NCBI GenBank assembly: GCA_037039685.1
Contig: JAWNGF010000007.1
Location: forward strand, 1,798,001 to 1,862,000
DNA length: 64,000 bases
Origin: Ceratobasidium sp. AG-K
Taxonomy: Eukaryota > Basidiomycota > Agaricomycetes > Cantharellales > Ceratobasidiaceae
Direction of reading: 5' to 3'
Positions 3,497-18,800 of the stretch are shown here, one piece after another (position 1 is the first letter of the stretch; the number at the start of each line of letters is the position of its first letter). Position numbers and translations under genes: made by a program. The notes below the pieces were generated by a model. That model had not been told where the DNA came from, made no database searches, and saw only the letters and a program-made list of their open reading frames with translations.

Positions 3497-3511
3497 ATTT
3501 GTATGTTGTTA

Positions 3512-3523
3512 AGCTTGTTTTGT
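3512..3523 (-). other. self-priming primer-binding site
   Basis: On the minus strand this reads ACAAAACAAGCT and starts two bases after the LTR end. It does not resemble a tRNA 3' end that I recognise. It is perfectly complementary to AGCTTGTTTTGT in the LTR, which sits where the transcript should begin. This is the arrangement known from Tf1 of fission yeast, where the RNA 5' end folds back and primes reverse transcription. Confidence 0.75.
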
Positions 3524-3525
3524 AA

Positions 3526-3982
3526 TGTCGTAAGCTTCTTCTTGGTGGCTATGAGACAAGCCGCGATGGAGAGTGGACGGCACTAAGACCTAAGTGACCT
3601 CTTGAACCGCAACGCACTTAAGCGTCTGTAGGCTCTTGAGGGTAGGGGTGGTTCTAAGTGTCACTTGAAGGGGATGTTTTGACGAGACAAAACAAGCTGG
3701 GGTTACCAGGCTTGTTGGTCCTCTATATATATTCAAGAAGTGGCCGAGTCATACAAGGCGCAGCCACATGAGTCACAGCAGTCAACCAGTCAGGAGTGTC
3801 CAAGTGAGTCATGCTGTATGAACAGACATGACTCGTACAAAGCACAGCCGCGTTACACAATGTAACAGAATAACCACAAGAAGGTGCCAACGCGCCAAGC
3901 GGAAACAGAAACACAACACAGAAGAAGGAAACAGGAGGGCGAGGCAACAGGCAAGTCCGATGGAGTGAGCTGGCTCACGACA
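3526..3982 (-). repeat. 5' LTR of the minus-strand gypsy element
   Basis: The 457-bp segment has the short inverted ends TGTCGT and ACGACA. On the minus strand a TATATATA box lies at 3731-3724, and the predicted RNA start (AGCTTGTTTTGT, 3698-3687) is 33 bases downstream. That 12-mer is exactly complementary to the primer-binding site at 3512-3523. Between TATA and start lies an inverted copy (3710-3716) of the start sequence. The LTR shares blocks with the solo LTR at 12425-12846, so the two are probably related families. Its outer boundary rests on the inverted ends only, since the second LTR is not visible. Confidence 0.8.
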
Positions 3983-4769
3983 CCTCTGGGACTTGGTGGC
4001 CACAGGTATGTGTGGGCAAGACAGTTGGAGCACCAAAACCTAAATTTGGCAATTACAAGGAACTAATGATTCAAGTAGGGAGTAAAATGGTAGGACTGGG
4101 AAGTTGCACAGTAGATACCACAGTTGTGAGCCCAAAGTGGTTGGCACAGAATCATCACATGCCACAACAACCACCATCACAGTACCTCAATGTCTGCTAT
4201 TGCAAATTCAAACCCACCTCATATCCCACCTTTGTGCTGCCCATAGAACCCCCTGGTGATAATTGGCCACCTTCCTGAGTGTTGTCACTTCCACAGGTGG
4301 TGGTTGACACTGGACCCATTCCAAAGGACAACACAGAAACTTCCCAATTCAACCCTATGCCCACATCTGCTGGGACTCATGGCAACAAGACTGTCAGTCC
4401 TTGTGCAGTGAGCATTGCCTGGAGCATTGCTTCAAGCATTCCCAAACTGGACATTGAGAAGACCTTACACATTATGTCTAATGAACCTATGCCTATGCCA
4501 GGCTCTGGCTATGCCAACCCAAACATCCCCAAGACTCCCTATTTAATGACTGCTTATCCCTCTGAAGGCAATATTATCAAGGCAATGGCTGAGCCATCCT
4601 TGATTGCTGACATGGTTGCTGCTAACCAACTTTATGAAGCCCTTAGGTATATGACTACCCCACAAACTGACTTTTTTCCTGAACACTTGATTCCTCTGAA
4701 GGACTCCATTCAGATTCCCTTCAGGAGTATTACATATGCAGTTCTATTGCACCACAACTACATCCAGAC
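3983..4769. other. CpG-poor segment between two retroelements, unidentified
   Basis: This stretch lies between the LTR of the minus-strand element and the 5' LTR of the plus-strand chromovirus. It is as CpG-poor as the neighbouring old elements. It holds a plus-strand open frame from 4279 with no domain I recognise. The frame is not stopped before the insertion point. If the chromovirus and one CAGAC copy are removed, it continues in phase into the DNA after 11087 and stops at 11355. It may be remains of another repeat or an old gene. Confidence 0.4.
4765..4769. repeat. target-site duplication CAGAC, left copy
   Basis: The five bases directly before the 5' LTR match the five directly after the 3' LTR (11083-11087). 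Five base pairs is the usual duplication length for gypsy integrases. Confidence 0.9.
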
Positions 4770-5256
4770 TGTCCTGAGCTCAGGTGCAATGTCATATTTT
4801 TTCTATTTTTTCTATCATTTTTCCGAGACAGTTTCCTTTTCTGGTATATTGTATAGAATGTTCTAGAATTAGCCATGTGATCAATTTGTCTTTTGATGTG
4901 ATATTACATTTGATTACCTATTTGATATTAGAATGTTCTGGAATGTTGTTCTTCTCTGTATATGGCTGTGCCACTTCATGTATATATACTGAGGGGTCAA
5001 GTCCAGTAAACAACCAAGACTTGACCCCCTGCCAATAGGATCAAGCATTCATACTTTTCACTCAGCAGGCTCTCAATCCCGCTTACACCTAAGTTACTAA
5101 GGCCTTAGTCACCGTCCACCTTCCAACACCCATTAAACCACCTTATCTCCATTCCCTCTGGGTTTAGGGTTTACCCTTTACTTATCATATTTGCCACAGG
5201 ACTTGGGCCCAGGTGCTATATTCTTTTCTTAGCCATCAGCAAGCTTAGTCGTGACA
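4770..5256 (+). repeat. 5' LTR of the chromovirus
   Basis: The 487-bp LTR starts TGTCCTGAG and ends GTGACA. A TATATATA box sits at 4981-4988 and the predicted RNA start, AAGACTTGACC, at 5016-5026. An 11-bp perfect inverted repeat (4993-5003 with 5018-5028) straddles the region just before and at the start. Two heat-shock-type arrays (4855-4869, 4930-4949) lie upstream of the TATA box. Confidence 0.92.
4855..4949 (+). promoter_or_regulatory. two heat-shock-element-like arrays in the 5' LTR
   Basis: Three contiguous pentamers aGAAt-gTTCt-aGAAt stand at 4855-4869. A second set aGAAt-gTTCt-gGAAt, with a partial fourth unit, stands at 4930-4949. Alternating nGAAn and nTTCn is the binding pattern of heat shock factor. 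They lie about 115 and 40 bp upstream of the TATA box, where an activator would act. In the 3' LTR the central unit reads TGC instead of TTC in both arrays. Function is inferred from pattern only. Confidence 0.5.
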
Positions 5257-5258
5257 CT

Positions 5259-5270
5259 AGGTCAAGTCTT
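5259..5270 (+). other. self-priming primer-binding site of the chromovirus
   Basis: AGGTCAAGTCTT begins two bases after the LTR. It is complementary over 12 bases to the start-site sequence in the 3' LTR (10842-10853) and over 11 bases to the one in the 5' LTR (5016-5026). The same spacing and logic are seen in the other two elements of this window. Confidence 0.75.
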
Positions 5271-6380
5271 TTTGAGTGCTGTCACATGTGGCACCAATTG
5301 CTCTCCCTCCATTTATATAGAACATACAGGGGAAAACAGGCACAGTGTGACCAACAACAGGGTATACTTGATATAGACTGGTAGTTGTTTGCCACTCTAC
5401 ACTGTCAGTGAACCCAATTGTTGTCCTCTCTCAGGCTCAAGCAGCTTTGGACAGCAGAAGCAACCACTTGCAGAGAATCCGCTTTTTCTCATGTTTGCCA
5501 GAACTGTAATAGTTAATAGGAGCTTTCCAATGCTAGCTGTTGATGCAAAAGCTTAGTGCACAATGCCCTTTGTCCTATCCTTCCCCCATCCACAAAGTTT
5601 TCCCATCACTGGTGCTTGTGTGGATTGCCTTCTGGTACAGGGCAGCAGCCCATTTGCACCAAGCACAAATTCATTGCTGGGCCCCCCTGTATCACTCCAC
5701 TCCAGCTTGCATCACATCTGGCAGTAAGTGCTGATGCATCCTGTGCATGTGAAAACATTAAACATTGTCTAGTGGTCCATAGACCCAGACACCTCCAAAA
5801 AGTTGGTAGAGCCCACCAAAAACTTGCACAGCAGCTTGAACCACTGAATGTTTATTGGGACAATACTCACCTCATTGCACCCTTAGTCAACTCTCACCCT
5901 TGCCATTGTTATCTACTCCGCCAAAGACACATTATCACACTAACTGTCTATGGCCAAACTCAATACTTCTACAACAACCTTAACTCCAAAAAAGTTGTTA
6001 AACAATATGGCCAAGGATAACAGATGGAAGTCAGGTGATACACCTACAACTTTTCCCTCTATGCTGCCAGGCAATCTGTATGATGCCATGCTCCCCATGT
6101 CTTTCACCCAACTGTGGCTTTGGAAGGAAGACTCCTTGTAGCATTGTATAATGAGATGATGTTTATGAAAGATAGCATTGCTCTTTTATGGGGTGAACAT
6201 GATGATCATGCAACAGAATTGGTGGGTAAACACTGAGAGTACTCCCAATAACTCATGGGAGCAGCAGTGCAGATTTAATTGATCCAAAATCCCATACAAA
6301 CAGTTCTGGGAGCATACCAAGCTAACCCTGACCAAAGTCTACGTCCACCCCCACCTGGTGATCACACCTTCCAATAGGCA
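5271..6380 (+). other. leader or decayed N-terminal gag of the chromovirus
   Basis: About 1.1 kb separate the primer-binding site from the recognisable gag. Short open stretches occur (5556-6020, 5950-6141) but stops interrupt every frame. The last part, just before 6381, is Pro-rich in the frame of gag and probably belongs to its N-terminus. Confidence 0.4.
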
Positions 6381-7560
6381 TTGTGGCCTCAAATACCTAA
6401 TCCAGGCCCAACCCATTACCCACCACCTCCTCTGCCAGGACCAGCCCAACAAGTTGCACAGGTGCCAAAAATCAAAATGGCAACACCTAACAAACTTAGC
6501 AGCAAAAGGAGCAAATCCTTGATGTTCCAAGTAAATTGCAATATTTATATTCAAGGAACCACTCTGAATGTGTCAGAGGACCGGAAAGTCAAAGCAGGGA
6601 TTTCGTATTTGGAAGGGGAAGCCCATGCATGGGTGCAATTGTACCTAGAATATGACATGTTGCACCCCATCCCCTGGCTACATAATTTGGCACAATTGTG
6701 GGTTGAATTTCAAGGTCACTTTGGTGAGATCAATTGGGAGGAAAAGAACTGGACCAAGCTTACAAAACTTAGGCAAACAGCCTTGGTTCAAGACTACCAT
6801 TGTGACTTCCAAAAGTACACTATTGGTCTCAATTATGGTGACCAAGCTCTTCAAGACATCTTCTATGAATGTCTCAGGGCAGAAGTCAAGAATATGATGC
6901 TCATGCAGGCTTTCAAACCATTTGGACCCACTACATCCTTTGATCAATTTGCCATTAAGGCATCAAAAATCGACCTTTGTTTGGAGTCAATCAAACCTAC
7001 ACACACATTATCCACTCCACAAGCACAGGCCAAGAAGTTGTTGAGTGTCCCGGCCACATTCAACCCCACATGTGGCCCCCAAGAGAAATTAAACATTGGC
7101 AACAAAGGCTATATGGTCGGACCAGATGGGAAAGCCAAAAAGGGTGCATTAACAGGCAAATCACACAATATTCAAAGCGCTCTGAACCCCATGATCAAAT
7201 AGAACACCAGCAAAAGCGCCGAAGGTGCCCTATCCAGTGCTGAAAAAAGATAATCATCTGGCATATACACTAACCCTGGCTGTGTCCAAACCCAATCCCA
7301 GAAGCCCAGGGCCAATGGAACTCAAGGGGAAAGGAAAAAGCATGATAATCTGCAACAATTGCAGAGGAAAGGGCCTTGTCAAACCATACTTTCTCCCCAA
7401 GTTCAGTCATGATAAACCAAAAACCTTAAAAGTTATTGACAGTGCAAAGTTGCCTCTGGACTGGTCAAACATTATACATGCCTCTCCATCCAGATTGCCA
7501 ACCACATTGAGGAAATTGAATGCCATTTGGCAGATGCTGGGAACCATTATTCAGTCTTAG
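6381..7560 (+). pseudogene. broken gag of the chromovirus
   Basis: The capsid-like core is recognisable at 6560-6900 in one frame (ISYLEGEAHAWVQLYLEYD, then a WVEFQGHFGEI segment). The frame stops at 7202, and the likely nucleocapsid part continues in another frame to 7560. Only half of a zinc knuckle (CNNCRGKG) remains there, with no following His and Cys at the expected spacing. It cannot give an intact Gag. Confidence 0.75.
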
Positions 7561-10500
7561 GGATGTCATGGCTTAAAACACATAATCCAAAAATCGATTG
7601 GAATTGCTGTACCATCTCATTTAGCTCTGAACATTGCTCCAAAAATTGCCTGGACAAGCCCAGAGTTTTACAATTAAACGCAGTACAGGAACACCCAGCC
7701 CCATATCAGAGCTTTGCAAAAGTCTTCTCAGAGGAGGAAGCAGCAAAGTTGCCCCCACATAGCAAATACAATCTTGCCATTGATTTTGTGCCTGACACAA
7801 AGCCCTCTCATGGCCCTATATACAGCATGGGTCCCAGGGAGGCCGCCTTGATCAAGGATATGATTGACAAAGTTTGTAAAACAGGTCTTCTCTGTGTTTC
7901 AAAATTATCCATGGTGTGCCCATGTCTTGCAGTTAAAATGAAGGACAGTTCTTTGCAAGTATGTCAGGACTATTGCAAAGCAAATGCTATGACCATTAAA
8001 AACATTGCCCAACTACCAGTCCCTCAGTACCTAATCAAGGAGTTACATGGAAAAAAGGTCTTTACCAAACTTGATCTTAAATCAGGTTTTAACCTGATCT
8101 GCATTCCAGAAGGCAATGAGTGGAAAACGGCATTCAAAACACAGTTTGCCATGTTTGAATGGCTTATAATGTCCTTTGGCCTCACCAATGCACCAGCAGC
8201 TTTTCAAAGCATGATGAACAACATTTTCTGTGACAAACTAGGCATCTCTGTCATCATATATATTGATGACATCTTGCTCTTTTCTGATACAATGGAGGAA
8301 CATATATCAGAAGTCCAGGAGATATTGCAACCCTTAATGGATAAGCACCTATATTGTAACTTCAAAATGTGTTCCTTCCACATCACAAAGGTTGATTATC
8401 TGGGCATGTTTGTGTTGGACAAAGGTGTTGAAGTAGACCAGGAAAAAGTCACTTCAGTGTGAACTGGTACAAACCTCATAATGTTAAGAATGTGCAGGAA
8501 TTCCTAGGTTTTGTAAACTTTTATAGATGGTTTGTACCCAATTTTGCAAATGTAGCACATCCCTTGAACAACCTTCTCAAAAAGGAAACAAAATGGGAAT
8601 GGTTGAGTGCAGCAGATGGTGCTTTTAATACACTCAAGGAGTACCTCACTTCAGCACCCCTACTAGTTCAACCTGACGTACTAGAACAATTCTTTGTTGA
8701 ATGTGATGCATTGGATTTTGTGGCCAGAGCCATATTATCACAAATGAATGCTGAAGGGAAACTTTGCCCAGTTGCGTATCTGTCCAAATCATTGCCACCA
8801 GCCAAACAAAACTATGATATTTTTGACAAGGAGTTACTAGCAATTATTTGAGCATTGGAAGAATGGAGACATGTATTGGAAGGATTGGAGAAGCCAGTCC
8901 AAGTGCTAACAGACCATAAGAATTTGGAAAACTTTGCCAAGTCTCAACAATTAAATTGCCAGCAAATTTGCTGGATGAGCTTCTTGGTCAATGATAATTA
9001 CAATATCATATATAGACCAGGAACTCAGCACTGCAAAGCAGACATCCTTTCCAGATGCTACAATCTTGTCCCACTTGAAGGGGGGTAGAGAAGCAAGTTC
9101 TCATTAAACCAGAACTTTCCATTGCTGCTATCACCCCAGATCAACAAATTCATGATCTAATTTGAGAAGCACTCCTAGAAGACTGTTGGCTAACAGAGGT
9201 CCTAGACAAACTTTGCAACAGGAAAGCAGTGAAAGACTAGGAACAACAAGGGGGCCTGCTCCTTTGCAGAGGCAAGATCTTTGTACCAAGGGAGGAGATG
9301 GTTAGGAACCTTGTGATGGAATCTAGACACAACACTCTAGCAGCAGGTAATCCAGGACAAGCTTGCATCTTGAAGCTGATCTCAAGAACATTCTATTGGC
9401 CATCAATCAAAAAAGCAGTCAATTCATACTTAGCTCACTGTGAAACCTCTATCCGCTCTAAAGCATCCAACCAGCTTCTGACAGGATTACTGCATCCACT
9501 ACAGGTTCCAGAACAACCCTTGGAAGAAGTATCCTATGACCTCATTATAGGGCTACCAGCATCAGAAGGTTTTAATGCAATTCTCACAGTTGTTGATCAC
9601 TTCTCTAAGATGGTCCACTATATTCCCACAAAATCCAATGCTACTTCCCTTGATGTTGCCAACTAATTTGTCACCTATGTATGGAAACTCCATGGGTTGC
9701 CCAAAGTCATGGTATCTGATTGAGGTTCAGTGTTTAACTACAAGTTCCTAAAGCACCTTTACAAGTGCGTAGAGATTAAAGTGTCCTACTCCACTGCATA
9801 TCATCCTGAAACCAACAGGCACTCAGAGTGTGCCAACCAGATAGTGGAAATATTCATATGGGCATACATGAATCATCATCAATCAAACTGGGTGTCACTC
9901 CTACCCATGCTGGAGTTTGTGTATAACAATGCTTTTCAATCATTGACAGGCAAATCCCCATTCCAAATCTGCCAAGGATTCAACCTGTGGTTTGCTGTTG
10001 GTGAAGACACAGATTACCAAGTCCCAAATACTGATGACCATGCCAAGTTCTTTAATGATGGATACAACAAAGTAAAAGCAGCACTCTCCTTAGCTCAGGA
10101 AAGTAAAAGTGTTTTTATGATCAGAATCATCATGTACCTGACAATATCAACAAAGGCAATAAAGTATGGCTTAGCCCCCAAAACATATCAACCAATCACC
10201 CTTTGGTGAAATTAACTCATAAGAAACTGGGACTGTACTGAGTTGTAAAGAAAGTAGGAACACATACATATCAACTCAAGTTATCTCATACTTTGCACAT
10301 ACATCCTGTTTTCCATACCACCCTGCTTTGGAAGGTTGAACCTGACCCTCATCAATGTGATCCACCGCAAACTCCTCCTATTGTCACAGAAGAAGGCAAG
10401 GAGGAATATGAAGTTGAGGAAATCCTGAACAGTTGTCACAAGAGCCATCATTGCTTTGAGTACTTTGTGAACTAGAAAGGATACAATCATGGGAGTAATA

Positions 10501-10563
10501 CTTGGGAACTACCTACCAACCTAGAGAATGCCAAAGACCTTGTTGCAGAATATCATCATTCAC
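7527..10563 (+). pseudogene. broken pol of the chromovirus: protease remnant, RT, RNase H, integrase, chromodomain
   Basis: The RT core is open from 7527 to 8462, with a conserved VIIYIDDILLFS catalytic motif. RT/RNase H continues at 8459-8851 and 8855-9088 after stop codons, with DHKNLENFAK and YRPGTQHCKADILSR as landmarks. Integrase spans 9298-10209. Its zinc-finger His and Cys positions are eroded (AGNPG where AGHPG is usual), and a TGA at 9721 follows the second catalytic Asp. A chromodomain follows at about 10380-10560 (EYEVEEILNS, then a KGYNHGSNTWELP core) with TAG in place of a usual Trp. Nearly every stop differs from the expected codon by one C-to-T or G-to-A transition. Confidence 0.88.
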
Positions 10564-10584
10564 AACCTTGTGCACCTCACCCTT

Positions 10585-10596
10585 GAGAGGGGGTAA
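10585..10596 (+). other. polypurine tract of the chromovirus
   Basis: GAGAGGGGGTAA lies directly before the 3' LTR. A purine run at this place is the usual primer for plus-strand DNA synthesis. Confidence 0.75.
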
Positions 10597-11082
10597 TGTC
10601 TGAGCTCAGGTGCAATGACATATTTTTTCTATTTTTGCCATCTTTTTTCCAAGACAGTTTCCTTTTCTGGTATATTGTATAGAACATGCTAGAATTAGTC
10701 ATGTGATCAATTTGTCTTTTGATGTGATATTACATTTGATTACCTATTTGATATTAGAACATGCTGGAATGTTGTTCTTCTCTGTATATGGCTATGCAAC
10801 TTCATGTATAAATACTGAGGGGTCAAGTCTGGTAAACAACCAAGACTTGACCTCCTCTCAATAGGATCAAGCATTCATACCTTTTACTCAGTGGGCTCTC
10901 TACCCTGCTTACACCTAAGTTACTAAGGCCTTAGTCACCGTCCACCTTCCAACACCCCTTAAACCACCTTTTCTCCATTCCCTTTGGGTTTAGGGTTTAC
11001 CCATTACTCATTGTATTTGCCACAGGACTTGGGCCTGGGTGTTATATTCTTCTCTGAGTTGTCAGCAAGCTTAGTTGTGACA
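10597..11082 (+). repeat. 3' LTR of the chromovirus
   Basis: The 486-bp LTR starts TGTCTGAG and ends GTGACA. It aligns along its full length with 4770-5256. Its TATA box reads TATAAATA (10807-10814) and its start-site 12-mer AAGACTTGACCT (10842-10853) is a perfect complement of the primer-binding site. Confidence 0.92.
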
Positions 11083-11087
11083 CAGAC
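11083..11087. repeat. target-site duplication CAGAC, right copy
   Basis: Right partner of 4765-4769. The next element's LTR begins only one base later, at 11089. Confidence 0.9.
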
Positions 11088-11088
11088 C

Positions 11089-11626
11089 TGTTGTGACCTG
11101 TCCATGACACCAATGGATGCTGACTGCTGCCTCCAACTCTCTGTGCCTTATGTGCCCAATGTTCATAGATATGGCCCTCTCCCTTGTTTTGTGAGGTGTA
11201 TGGATGACATGTCACTGTGGCCCATGTGGCTGCACTGTCTTCTGGATCTTTCTCTTGGAAAGATCAACCTTCTAGAACCTCTGTCTAGAAGGTCTTTGTG
11301 TTTTGCTGACTTAGCGTGGCGCCTGATTGGCCACATATGTATTGTACCACTTTGAGGCATGGATGCCTCTGACAATATATACTGGCCAGCAAGCATGGAC
11401 TTACTCTAGCTTGCTTTGCCTTGTCATCTCTCCCCTTGAGTGCAACTAAGTCAATAGGCCTTTAGGCCATCATCTGAACACAAAGTGGGCCCCAGGCCAT
11501 TGTCATAAGGTTGCTAAGGTTGCACTAGCAACATAGCATAGGGTACAGAGCCTCTAAGGCAGCTCCAGGCCTATAAGACACAAATGGACATGGACATTGG
11601 TCAACCAGCAAAGAGGGGTTGCAACA
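11089..11626 (+). repeat. 5' LTR of the truncated element
   Basis: The 538-bp segment has inverted ends TGTTG and CAACA. TATATA lies at 11376-11381, and the predicted RNA start TAGCTTGCTTTGC at 11407-11419 is 31 bases downstream. An inverted copy AGCAAGC (11388-11394) lies between them. The left boundary is only one base from the chromovirus target duplication. Boundaries rest on the inverted ends and on the primer site placed two bases beyond the right end. Confidence 0.7.
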
Positions 11627-11628
11627 TT

Positions 11629-11641
11629 GCAAAGCAAGCTA
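11629..11641 (+). other. self-priming primer-binding site of the truncated element
   Basis: GCAAAGCAAGCTA is a perfect 13-base complement of TAGCTTGCTTTGC at 11407-11419, and begins two bases after the LTR end. It is the third independent example of this layout in the window. Confidence 0.75.
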
Positions 11642-12419
11642 CATACACTACTAGCCACAAGGAAACACATCTTGCTCACAGACACGGAAAATCATGGTAT
11701 CCTCAAGACCCTCATCAAGAGCAGAAGTGGAAGAACTCTGTGCAAGGATACAGGAAGTATGGGCAAACCCACCATGCAGGGCAAGGCCCTCACCAGACTT
11801 CACAGAGTCACTAAGACCACAGCAATGATCCAGAGCTCCCAGCACTAGAACTGTCCCAGGAGGACTGGGAGGTATTGGCAAAAACCTGGCCAAAATAGTT
11901 AGGTTGGATAATGCATCTCTGACAATAGTGGTAATACCAACCACAGAAAGCACCACCAACACAGGGGCAATCACAATCCCCTCAGCACCTCTTAGAGTAG
12001 TGGTACCAACAGTCGCATCACCAGTGGCTCAACAGACAATACAAATCAGAAGGGAGTGGAGGAACCCTACCCCAGGACCCTCACAACCCAGAGTAATGGT
12101 ACAGAGATCACTCCTTACCTTCTCAATAATGTCCCATCCTTCCAATGCAACAAGCTCTACCCCAGCTCCCTATTCCTTCTATAGTGAGGAAAGCCAAATC
12201 CCTGCCCTTGCAAATGTGGAAGGAGATCCAGCCTCAGTACCCCCATCAAGAACACTATCTGCAACAAGCACCAGTGGCTCAATTGCCACAGCCTCAATAG
12301 ATGAGAACATAAGGCAACAGAGTGCAGTCATCAATACACAGGGAAGGGAAGTAGAAGTCCTACAAGCCATCTATGATAGGATACAACAGGAATACATGGA
12401 GAACAATGCCACCATGGCA

Positions 12420-12424
12420 GTAAG
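12420..12424. repeat. target-site duplication GTAAG, left copy of the solo LTR
   Basis: Identical to 12847-12851 on the other side of the solo LTR. Removing the LTR and one copy rejoins the gag frame without a shift. Confidence 0.8.
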
Positions 12425-12846
12425 CGTCACAACCCTTACCGAACCTTGGAGGCCGAGACTCCACAGGCAGTGAGGATGGGGGTTGGGGTGACGGCAAAGG
12501 TTGAATGGACAGCAACTAAGGCCTAAGTGAGTCACGTGATGAGTGATGGGAAAACAACAAGAGAACAAGTCTTGTGGTAGCAAGACTTGTGTCGCTGGTA
12601 TATGTACTATCTACTGTGGCTATGTACAATAGAGAGTATGCAACAAAGGGGAGAAAGCAGGAGTCCGAGAGAAGCAAGGACAGAACAAAGGGGGCATGAC
12701 AAGTCCATGGAAAACGAGGAACGAGTGAAGCTAGCCAGGCGAGCATGTCCCGCGGTCATGGCTTACATAATAGCGACTAAATGCGCCAAGGTGAGCAGAA
12801 CGAGACCAAACAGGGCAACAAACAAGGCAAACGAAAGGTCGTGACA
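12425..12846 (-). repeat. solo LTR inserted in gag
   Basis: A 422-bp insertion flanked by GTAAG (12420-12424 and 12847-12851). Its ends are the imperfect inverted pair CGTCAC and GTGACA. Blocks shared with the LTR at 3526-3982 in the same orientation support its being an LTR on the minus strand. It has a TATA-like stretch near 12605-12599 and a 10-bp inverted repeat, 12565-12574 with 12581-12590, at the predicted start site. No internal region remains, as expected after LTR-LTR recombination. Confidence 0.82.
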
Positions 12847-12851
12847 GTAAG
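12847..12851. repeat. target-site duplication GTAAG, right copy of the solo LTR
   Basis: Right partner of 12420-12424. Confidence 0.8.
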
Positions 12852-15855: not shown

Positions 15856-18800
15856 ATGACAGAGCCCAAGCCCAAGAAGGGGTTTTGTGCTCGTGTACTG
15901 GACAAGGCGCGGGGAACACCCCGATCGACTTCATCTTCCGCTAAACCAAACTCTTCGGCAGCTTCATCTTCTGATATCCCATTTCCAGGGCCATCAACTG
16001 CAACTGGTAGCATCGCAGAACCTAATCTACCAGCATCCTCACCGTCTGGAACCCCGCCCCCGCTTGCCCGCTTGTCAGTACCACCACACCAAACACCGGG
16101 TTTACCTGTAGCCTCCAATACAGTCCCTTCAATCAATGTGGGACCTGGATCAAGACTGAAGAGCGAGACCGCCTGGGATGGACTCTACACCACACTTCGT
16201 GGATTGCATAAAAGCACTGGGCTGTTCCCGCCGCTCCAGTCGGCGATTGGCGGAGTGATGTCCTGTCTGACAGCTGTTGTGGTAAGCATGCTCATGTGGT
16301 GAGCTGAAGGATGTGAGGAAGCTGACCGAGTTTTATGAATAGGATTCGTCCGCGAACAAAAGTGAATACGAGACATTGGCGTTGGAGCTGGGAGAGATAA
16401 GTAAATCGTTAAGCCACTACCTAATGGGATCAGAGTCCAGGCGGATGTCAGAGTCAATAGCGAGAACCGCTCGGTAAGCTTCCAATGTTCACCGGGCACG
16501 CGTATCTGAAGCGCATATAGACTGATTGAGCAGCAAGTCAATCTCATCGGCAGCAAAGAGAACCGTGGCAGCGCAATGCGCATGTTACAGGCAGAACAGG
16601 ACAAAGAAACGGTCATCGAGTGCTATCGGAACATCCGGGCACTCCTCCAGCAGTTACAGGTGATTGTGACAATAGAACAATATTAAGTGTTATTTTCTGA
16701 CGGCCATGTAGCTCGACGCCAGTCTCAGCATGTGGAGCATCGCGAATAGGCAGATGGTGGTAGGGCAAATGTATCGAATGCGGGACCATGATTCTCACAC
16801 TGTGCAGGACACTCGACTTGAAGGCCTCAAAGCAGCCATGCTCGCTGCACACGGCTCCAGCTTGTCCATGGAGATCAACCGCCGGACCTGCACTGAAAAC
16901 ACTCGCACAAACGTTCTGTCTGGTCTCGATGGCTGGTCGACTGACCCCGACTCTCCAAATGTCTACTGGATGAACGGTCTCGCCGGTACCGGAAAGACGA
17001 CAATCGCATGCACGTTCGCCGAGACACTCAAGGAGCGCAATCAGCTAGCGGCGAGCTTCTTCTGCACTCGCAGCTCAGCGGAATGTCAAGACGTGACCCG
17101 AATCATACCTACCATCGCCTACCAGCTTGCCCGCTATTCCATCCCGTTCCAGTCAGCCCTCTGTCAGATGCTGGAGGACAATCCAGACCTCGGTACACGC
17201 ATGATCTCCACTCAGTTCGAGAGTCTACTGAGGAAGCCACTGATAGAAGTCAAGGCAGCGATACCAAAAGGGCTGGTGGTAGTGATCGATGCTCTAGACG
17301 AGTGCACAGCGAGCAGAGGGGTAGAGACGGTGCTTGACATGCTGCTTCGGAGCGCCGGCGATCTGCCACTCAAGTTCTTTGTAACGAGCCGACCGGCGCC
17401 AAACATACGGGATAGAATCGAAACCCGACCCGACGGATCGCGCATTGGGGTACTACACGACATCGAACGATCGTTGGTGCAAGCAGACATCGAGCGATAC
17501 ATACAGAAAGAGTTACCATCACTCTCAAGGTCCGAAATCGCGCAGCTTGCTGATCGGTCTGGCAGCCTGTTCATCTATGCAGCGACAGCGGTCAGATACA
17601 TCCAAGCCGGGGAGTCAACCAGAGACTTCGACGAGCATGTGGCAGCGATGCTGTCGGGTGGCTCGACCGGTGATATGAACAGGGAGCACCTCGAGATCGA
17701 TAGGCTGTACAAGACCATTTTGCGGACGGCGGACGAGAAAATGAGAGAGGGAGACACAAAGGAACGAATGAGGCACGTGCTCTGGACGGTTGTATGCGCT
17801 CGGGAGCCAATCACTATCGAGACTTTGGCGCTACTGGCGAAGGTCGAGCTGAACAAGACAAAGGCTATGCTACTACACCTGCATGCTGTGTTGTACCAGC
17901 CCGAAGGAGGTGAAGTTATATCAACCATACATGCCTCGTTTACGGACTTTATGCTCGATTCATCTCGGTCGACCGCATTCTTCTGCGACTCGAGGCAGCA
18001 CAGCTGGTTACTTACCCAACAGTGCTTTGGATTGATGACGAAACAGCTGTGTTTCAACATTTGTGGACTGGAGTCGTCATATCAGGCCGACGAGCAAGTA
18101 CCTCAGCTGGAGGAGCGTGTGAACAAAGCAATCTCGCCAACACTGGGTTACGTGTGCCGGTACTGGGGAGATCACCTGAACCAGTCATGTGACTCGAATG
18201 GGCTGTACAAGCTACTTGATGAATTCCTATCCAAGCAGTTGCTTTTCTGGATGGAAACAGTCAATCTGAAACGACAGATGGGTGTAGGCGTGCGGGCGAT
18301 ACTGGGGGCGAAACTGTGGCTGACGGTGAGCTAGGGTGTTCGACTGAACCCACTAGACGCTCAGTAGATTTACGTTCGTGCAGATCAATCACCCATCGTC
18401 CAAGCTCCTGAGACTGGCTGAGGATGCTCGTAACTTTGTCGCTTCTTTTGCAGCAAATGCCATTTGCCAAAGCACACCTCACATCTACGTATCAGCCCTC
18501 TCTCTTACGCATCATTCGAGTGCAGTTTACAAGCACTACTGGGAGCGAACTCGCGGGCTGATAGAACCCAGAGGCATAGGCATTGACCGAAGGTACGAGA
18601 CAGCTATAGCAAGCTGGAGGGTTGCCTTTTTTGTGAACTCGGTTACCTACTCTCGCGACGGCGCCTACATTGCCATTGGAGGCAGGAATGGCACCCTCAC
18701 TATCAGAGACGCCTACGATGGCACACCCATCGGCGGGCCATTTGAGGGCCACACTGGTACCATACACTCGGTCGCATTCTCATTTGACGGCACCCGCATT

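What the first reader, a model, noticed from the sequence alone, without database searches (positions are those of the whole stretch)
3510..12590. Four LTRs carry a PBS-like inverted copy of the RNA start sequence just upstream of that start
In each LTR the predicted transcript start forms the downstream arm of a short inverted repeat, and the upstream arm lies between TATA and start. The arms are 3691-3697 with 3710-3716 (minus), 4993-5003 with 5018-5028, 11388-11394 with 11409-11415, and 12565-12574 with 12581-12590 (minus). Arms are 7 to 11 bp, loops 6 to 14. The LTR sequences otherwise differ strongly. The upstream arm has the same sense as the primer-binding site. In the RNA it would exist only near the 3' end, where it could hide the second copy of the self-primer in the 3' R region, so that only the true 5' end can anneal to the primer site. 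I know of no description of such a U3 decoy arm.
Basis: partly seen in the sequence, partly recalled or inferred. Interest (0 to 1): 0.78.

Follow-up and report, generated by a model that had tools for sequence, protein, structure and literature searches.

The report
Hairpin hiding a retrotransposon's second self-primer
Several families of fungal jumping genes that start copying themselves with the tip of their own RNA carry, beside the second copy of that tip, a short matching sequence that can fold over it and probably keeps it out of use; the match is kept even where the tip sequence has changed completely.

Summary
All four arm pairs are at the stated coordinates; a fifth is in the 3' LTR of element 2. 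The elements are self-priming Ty3/gypsy retrotransposons of a 53.6 Mb genome. In each family the PBS starts 2 nt after the LTR's CA end and is the 12-13 nt complement of a word 31-35 bp below TATA. Three more families (E5, E6, E7) were found without using the arm. All 7 families of this genome have a U3-R hairpin beyond dinucleotide shuffles (p 0.0005-0.004), although the five RTs compared are only 34-59% identical. Arms fit their own primer: 0 of 1,000,000 random re-pairings of 11 families, armless ones included, reach the observed energy. In other records the arm is clear in two families (L163; L173/L170), absent in one certain self-primer (L164) and in one tentative one (L167): widespread, not universal. 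Best reading: the arm masks the 3' R copy of the primer, so that only an authentic RNA 5' end pairs with the PBS. Folding favours masking in RNA over protection of DNA. RNA 5' ends and function are untested. Nine literature searches found no description; the founding Tf1 papers are not held.

The parts
3526..3982 (-). E1 5' LTR (TG...CA; bounds read by eye)
3724..3731 (-). E1 TATA box
3710..3716 (-). E1 U3 arm (AACAAGC)
3687..3698 (-). E1 predicted RNA start / self-primer, 12 nt
3512..3523 (-). E1 PBS, exact complement of the primer, 2 nt after the LTR
4770..5256 (+). E2 5' LTR
4981..4988 (+). E2 TATA box
4993..5003 (+). E2 U3 arm
5016..5027 (+). E2 predicted RNA start / self-primer
5259..5270 (+). 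E2 PBS (11 of 12 nt complementary in this copy; 12 of 12 in L003)
10393..10587 (+). E2 C-terminal chromodomain region of a broken pol (bounds approximate)
10597..11082 (+). E2 3' LTR
10819..10829 (+). E2 3' LTR U3 arm (fifth arm pair of the window)
10842..10853 (+). E2 3' R copy of the primer
11092..11626 (+). E3 5' LTR (start read by eye and from family matches)
11376..11381 (+). E3 TATA box
11388..11394 (+). E3 U3 arm
11408..11419 (+). E3 predicted RNA start / self-primer
11629..11640 (+). E3 PBS
12425..12846 (-). E4 solo LTR, target duplication GTAAG at 12420-12424 and 12847-12851
12599..12604 (-). E4 TATA-like CATATA
12581..12590 (-). E4 U3 arm
12562..12573 (-). E4 predicted RNA start / self-primer (PBS seen in genomic copies)

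Best explanation
Each LTR carries in U3, just upstream of the RNA start, an anti-primer arm: a mimic of the PBS that folds onto most of the first 12-13 nt of R. The 5' copy of the primer in the RNA lacks this arm, because transcription starts below it, so it can pair with the PBS and be cut to prime. The 3' copy, and any copy in an RNA started too far upstream, stays locked in a local hairpin. The arm thus lets the element tell its true 5' end from a second identical sequence, avoids futile or damaging pairing or cutting in the 3' R, and leaves the rest of R open for first-strand transfer. Shown by sequence: self-priming geometry, the hairpin, matched change of arm and primer. Computed: the energy difference between the two copies. 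Inferred: the RNA 5' end, masking in the particle, and its benefit.
For: 7 of 7 families of this genome have the hairpin (dinucleotide shuffles p 0.0005-0.004), three of them (E5, E6, E7) found without the arm. Own-versus-swapped arms: 2 of 5,040 for the 7 families; 0 of 1,000,000 sampled for 11 families including armless X3 and X4; 2 of 5,040 for the seven arm-blind finds alone, armless ones included. Very different primers are each matched: E7 AAGAACAATTTAC, L163 CAGTCTCGACAA, L173 AAGGCGAACAA. One to three pairs lie upstream of +1, which only a local U3-R hairpin can form. At the modelled 3' end 72-99% of the primer copy pairs with U3 in 9 of 9 arm-bearing families, while in the 5' leader primer:PBS pairing is 0.94-0.99 in 8 of 9. 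Loss of PBS binding exceeds that of shuffled intervals at p <= 0.03 in 8 of 9.
Against: L164 self-primes without an arm and L167 (tentative) too. In the E2 leader the model does not form primer:PBS (0.06); X2 binding loss is p 0.06. E1 is weak by bare duplex energy and in the sliding control. The loop between arm and start is about as conserved as the arm (E1 0.994 against 0.995; E7 0.978 against 0.966), so conservation alone does not single out the arm. Own primer ranks only second for E5 and third for E6 and E7 among 11. No RNA ends or functional data.
Confidence: 0.6

Rival explanations
1. The same hairpin acts at the DNA stage. Plus-strand strong-stop DNA ends in the PBS, which is complementary to R-start in the same strand, so it could fold back and prime itself. 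The arm would hide R-start until second-strand transfer.
For: With DNA parameters the snap-back is 0.96-0.99 when the U3 interval is held single-stranded, and much lower with it free in E1 (0.30), E2 (0.00), E4 (0.04), E7 (0.06), X1 (0.00), X2 (0.32). In HIV-1, self-priming of minus strong-stop DNA is a known hazard (PMC4668388, passages).
Against: E3 and E6 still snap back at 0.95 and 0.97 and E5 at 0.61, whereas the RNA model works in 9 of 9.
Confidence: 0.13
2. The arm is a docking site: the self-primer, or the strong-stop DNA that carries it, pairs with the U3 arm at the 3' end and helps circularise the RNA and transfer the first strand, as the U3 half of the Ty3 bipartite PBS does with tRNA.
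For: The arm has PBS sense. Ty3 places the second half of its PBS in U3 (PMC5371799, PMC11381356, passages).
Against: The same primer nucleotides cannot pair with PBS and arm at once. One to three pairs involve U3 nucleotides upstream of +1 that a 5' primer does not have. The local hairpin competes with docking.
Confidence: 0.1
3. The inverted repeat is a promoter feature (binding site or initiator geometry) and its match to the primer is a by-product.
For: It lies between TATA and a CC|A start at constant distance, and the whole interval is conserved within families.
Against: The sequence differs between families while pairing is kept, unlike a sequence-specific site. Stem positions track the primer.
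Confidence: 0.1
4. Chance plus common descent: an inherited inverted repeat without function.
For: E1, E3, E5 and E6 share a recognisable core; X3 and X4 lack the arm; E1 is weak in the sliding control.
Against: Every arm-bearing family passes on its own, and neutral change would not keep arm and primer matched while both change.
Confidence: 0.04

Closest known systems
Tf1/sushi group of self-priming chromoviruses (Tf1, Tf2, Tj1, Tosmo, Tcn1-like)
   Same: PBS complementary to the RNA 5' end; first 11 nt of Tf1 RNA used as primer (PMC7175516, passages); chromodomain in E2.
   Different: The passages I saw describe primer, PBS and a 5' pretzel (PMC10085805; PMC4600332), not a U3 arm. PMC10085805 notes that Tosmo2 differs from Tosmo1 and Tosmo3 in U3 up to 9 bp from R; whether these have arms was not tested.
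Ty3 5'-3' bipartite PBS
   Same: A PBS-like stretch in U3 at the 3' end of the RNA (PMC5371799, passages).
   Different: Ty3 binds a tRNA through separate parts of it; here the same self-primer nucleotides pair with either PBS or arm.
HIV-1 TAR and strong-stop self-priming
   Same: A terminal-repeat hairpin that affects strand transfer and self-priming (PMC4668388, passages).
   Different: TAR lies in R, so it is at both RNA ends (recalled); this hairpin spans U3-R and would exist only at the 3' end.

Membership tests
Self-priming LTR retrotransposon (Tf1-type priming) | PBS next to the 5' LTR complementary to the predicted RNA 5' end | tested here: met
   12-13 nt exact complement in a representative of each of E1-E7; 12 nt in L163 and L164, 11 nt in L173, 10 nt in L167
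Self-priming LTR retrotransposon (Tf1-type priming) | RNA starts exactly at the primer | not testable with these tools
   No RNA data; TATA spacing 31-35 bp is consistent
Self-priming LTR retrotransposon (Tf1-type priming) | RNase H cut behind the primer | not testable with these tools
   Known for Tf1 from PMC7175516 (passages)
Tf1/sushi chromovirus | Ty3/gypsy RT with chromodomain after integrase | tested here: met
   E2 only: RVT_1, Integrase_H2C2, rve, Chromo. E1 RT and gag gypsy-like, its C-terminus lies outside the window; not tested for E3-E7
Tf1/sushi chromovirus | Clusters with Tf1/sushi in an RT tree | not tested
   No reference RT set was fetched
Tf1/sushi chromovirus | Three-duplex pretzel in the 5' leader | tested here: inconclusive
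   Central primer:PBS duplex in the MFE of 8 of 9 arm-bearing leaders (not E2), and the 5' flank of PBS pairs with R/U5; the 3'-flank duplex, which would be a pseudoknot, cannot be shown by this fold
Ty3-like bipartite PBS | tRNA primer with a second binding stretch in U3 | tested here: not met
   PBS is complementary to the element's own LTR; a search for tRNA complements was not run

The most novel reading that the evidence does not exclude
Self-priming retrotransposons carry a dedicated cis-acting anti-primer in U3 that masks every copy of the self-primer except one at a true RNA 5' end: a built-in check of end identity, old enough to span deeply diverged gypsy lineages, which evolves in step with primer and PBS as a three-way matched set.
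Probability: 0.55. Interest if true: 0.82.

Novelty: new variant of a known kind. Interest (0 to 1): 0.72.

Why it matters
Self-priming poses a logical problem: the primer is part of R, so each genomic RNA carries it twice, and cDNA strands carry it too. How the element uses only the 5' copy was not addressed in what I could search (founding Tf1 papers not held). An arm that changes with the primer gives a concrete, testable answer, a way to predict RNA start and PBS from an LTR alone (also from solo LTRs), and a marker of self-priming for annotation. The armless exceptions offer a natural comparison.

Tried and rejected
PBS-variant hunting for new families: the variants of E1, E4, E5 and E6 that I fetched mostly proved to be differences between PBS and an unchanged or differently changed R, with the arm as in the family, so they give no covariation; L129, L130, L133 and L134 gave no self-priming LTR, and L114 was cut too short. 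The 10-nt scan of 292 kb also listed 11 other words (each in 1-2 places) and cross-LTR pairs of E4; I set the 11 aside by eye because they do not sit 2 nt behind an ACA end. Searches likewise listed a few words that I set aside; one search listed words in L166 and L168 that I set aside. Relatives in viral contigs: none. L165, L166, L168 and L169 show no 5' LTR signature and could not be tested. L171 and L172 show no self-priming signature. My first guess of the X2 primer register was wrong: the 11-mer that I expected as PBS occurs in contig C258 only as the two arms; L173 then showed the real PBS, shifted by 3 nt. L170's own PBS was not seen; it is put with X2 by likeness. That the arm is a copied PBS with its flanks was dropped by eye: no likeness beyond the arm. 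A control set of tRNA-primed LTRs was not obtained; controls are shuffles, slid positions, swapped families and neighbouring intervals. Rows dropped: the 8-family permutation leaves out E3 (near-duplicate of E5) and the armless X3 and X4; the 11-family test puts them back.
Full report
What is there. The four arm pairs are exact at the stated places. They belong to four LTR families: E1 (minus, 5' LTR about 3526-3982), E2 (plus, LTRs 4770-5256 and 10597-11082), E3 (plus, 5' LTR about 11092-11626) and E4 (minus, solo LTR 12425-12846 with a 5-bp target duplication, inside E3). E1 encodes gag, protease and reverse transcriptase, E2 reverse transcriptase and E3 a gag; broken E2 also keeps integrase and chromodomain pieces.

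Self-priming. An arm-blind scan (a word below TATA whose complement lies 100-800 bp on, near a CA) returns only E1, E2 and E3 in 64 kb, both strands. For E4, 14 of 20 fetched genomic copies (L081-L094) show the PBS; the other six show other flanks. In a representative of each family the PBS begins 2 nt after the terminal CA of the LTR and is a 12-13 nt exact complement of a word 31-35 bp below TATA. This is the geometry of Tf1 priming, in which the first 11 nt of the RNA pair with the PBS and are cut off as primer (PMC7175516, passages).

More families without using the arm. E5 came from scanning fetched flanks, E6 from scanning three 8.5-10 kb stretches, E7 from a reverse-transcriptase search followed by the scan, with 20 further copies. 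Primers: E1 AGCTTGTTTTGT, E2 AAGACTTGACCT, E3 AGCTTGCTTTGC, E4 AAGACTTGTTCT, E5 AGCTTGCTTCGC, E6 ATCTTGTTTTGC, E7 AAGAACAATTTAC. Identities among the RT stretches of E1, E2, E4, E5 and E7 are 34-59% (34% for E1-E2 over 317 residues, the others over about 150-163). E3 and E6 were not measured.

The hairpin. In 7 of 7 families the interval between TATA and start folds onto the primer better than dinucleotide shuffles of the interval (p 0.0005-0.004, 2,000 shuffles each) and base shuffles (p 0.0005-0.007). Weaker measures: bare duplex energy of E1 (p 0.083), longest word of E6 (p 0.089), and the sliding control for E1 (22 of 369 positions as good). The stem covers most of the first 12-13 nt and takes in 1-3 pairs upstream of +1. 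Nearby intervals hold shorter complements: 2-4 nt upstream of TATA; 3-7 nt downstream of the primer, the 7 being E1.

Arm and primer change together. Pairing of each U3 interval with all primers: 2 of 5,040 pairings of the 7 families reach the observed energy, one being the true pairing and the other the energy-equal swap of the near-identical E3 and E5. With eight arm-bearing families (E3 left out as near-duplicate of E5, armless X3 and X4 left out) 1 of 40,320; with all 11 families, X3 and X4 included, 0 of 1,000,000 random pairings; with only the seven arm-blind finds (E5, E6, E7, L163, L170, L164, L167) 2 of 5,040. Own primer ranks first of 11 for E1, E2, E3, E4, L163 and L173, second for E5, third for E6 and E7, 7th for L164 and 8th for L167. 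Families are related, so these counts are optimistic as probabilities.

Maintenance. An exact arm of 6 nt or more is kept in 30 of 30 E1, 26 of 30 E2, 18 of 21 E3, 21 of 21 E4 and 15 of 21 E7 aligned copies. These are fetched copies only; the first look listed 1,489 candidates for E1, 460 for E3, 399 for E4 and 222 for E7, of which 40 each were scored. Mean column identity of the arm is 0.995, 0.956, 0.992, 0.995 and 0.966 (E1, E2, E3, E4, E7) against 0.939, 0.850, 0.893, 0.979 and 0.957 for the U3 upstream of TATA; the stretch between arm and start is nearly as high (0.994, 0.927, 0.963, 0.939, 0.978).

Other records. A scan of bacterial genome records found seven contigs with related RT, evidently eukaryotic contaminants. 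Three hold a 5' LTR signature. L163 (X1): primer CAGTCTCGACAA, 12-nt PBS, hairpin -23.0 kcal/mol, arm present. L164 (X3): 12-nt PBS, arm absent. L167 (X4): 10-nt PBS behind a TCA end, tentative, arm absent. Dinucleotide-shuffle p: 0.0005, 0.22, 0.58. From the record of L164 (47 RT matches) I took by place three stretches that exist: L170 has a 12-bp U3-R hairpin, L171 and L172 show no self-priming signature. L173, found with the hairpin word and so not arm-blind, is a relative of L170 with its PBS in view (TTGTTCGCCTT for AAGGCGAACAA) and hairpin p 0.0005. Of the seven arm-blind finds, five have the arm.

Mechanism. In the 5' leader the primer pairs with the PBS at 0.94-0.99 in 8 of 9 arm-bearing families (E2 0.06); at the 3' end the primer copy pairs with U3 at 0.72-0.99 in 9 of 9, at 0.35 in X3 and 0.29 in X4. 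PBS binding falls by 5.7-14.6 kcal/mol when the U3 interval is present; shuffled intervals cost 0.4-4.3 on average (400 shuffles; p <= 0.03 in 8 of 9, X2 0.06). In X3 the loss is 2.3 (p 0.32); in X4 it is 8.9 (p 0.29), as much as in armed families but no more than its shuffles give. In plus-strand DNA the arm strongly lowers snap-back in E1, E2, E4, E7, X1 and X2, partly in E5, hardly in E3 and E6. I therefore prefer masking in RNA. Everything after the fold, masking in particles and its benefit, is inference.

Known or new. The passages on self-priming or LTR structure that I saw (PMC10085805, PMC3601003, PMC2864245, PMC4600332, PMC6317226, PMC7175516) describe primer, PBS and a 5' pretzel, not a U3 arm. 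Searches. The original Tf1 papers are not held, so absence from print is not established. The elements are self-priming gypsy elements, at least E2 a chromovirus; the arm is an addition to that known kind, hence new variant of a known kind.

Noticed in passing
L163-L169; G002 (record of L164): Bacterial and cyanobacterial genome records hold contigs of eukaryotic gypsy elements; the Trichormus MAG behind L164 has 47 RT matches to my alignment.
   Followed up: partly
L164:1-55 and 5211-5265: The contig repeats its first stretch at its end, as if one LTR element had been assembled as a circle with a single LTR.
   Followed up: no
window 4770-11082: E2 pol carries many stops, and its modelled 5' leader does not favour primer:PBS pairing (0.06), unlike the other eight arm-bearing families.
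   Followed up: no
L167:4800-4960: The U3-R region forms another hairpin that spans the start; PBS binding is lowered as much as in armed families, though no more than shuffles give.
   Followed up: no
L166:1-200: The contig begins with a tandem repeat of roughly 40 nt (by eye).
   Followed up: no
window 16800-18000: The sequence reads by eye like an NTPase of NACHT type (recalled motif, no search run).
   Followed up: no
L006 and L008, about 2140-2930: E4-related LTRs with slightly different loops lie downstream of E2 LTR copies, with hairpin arms of the same design.
   Followed up: no
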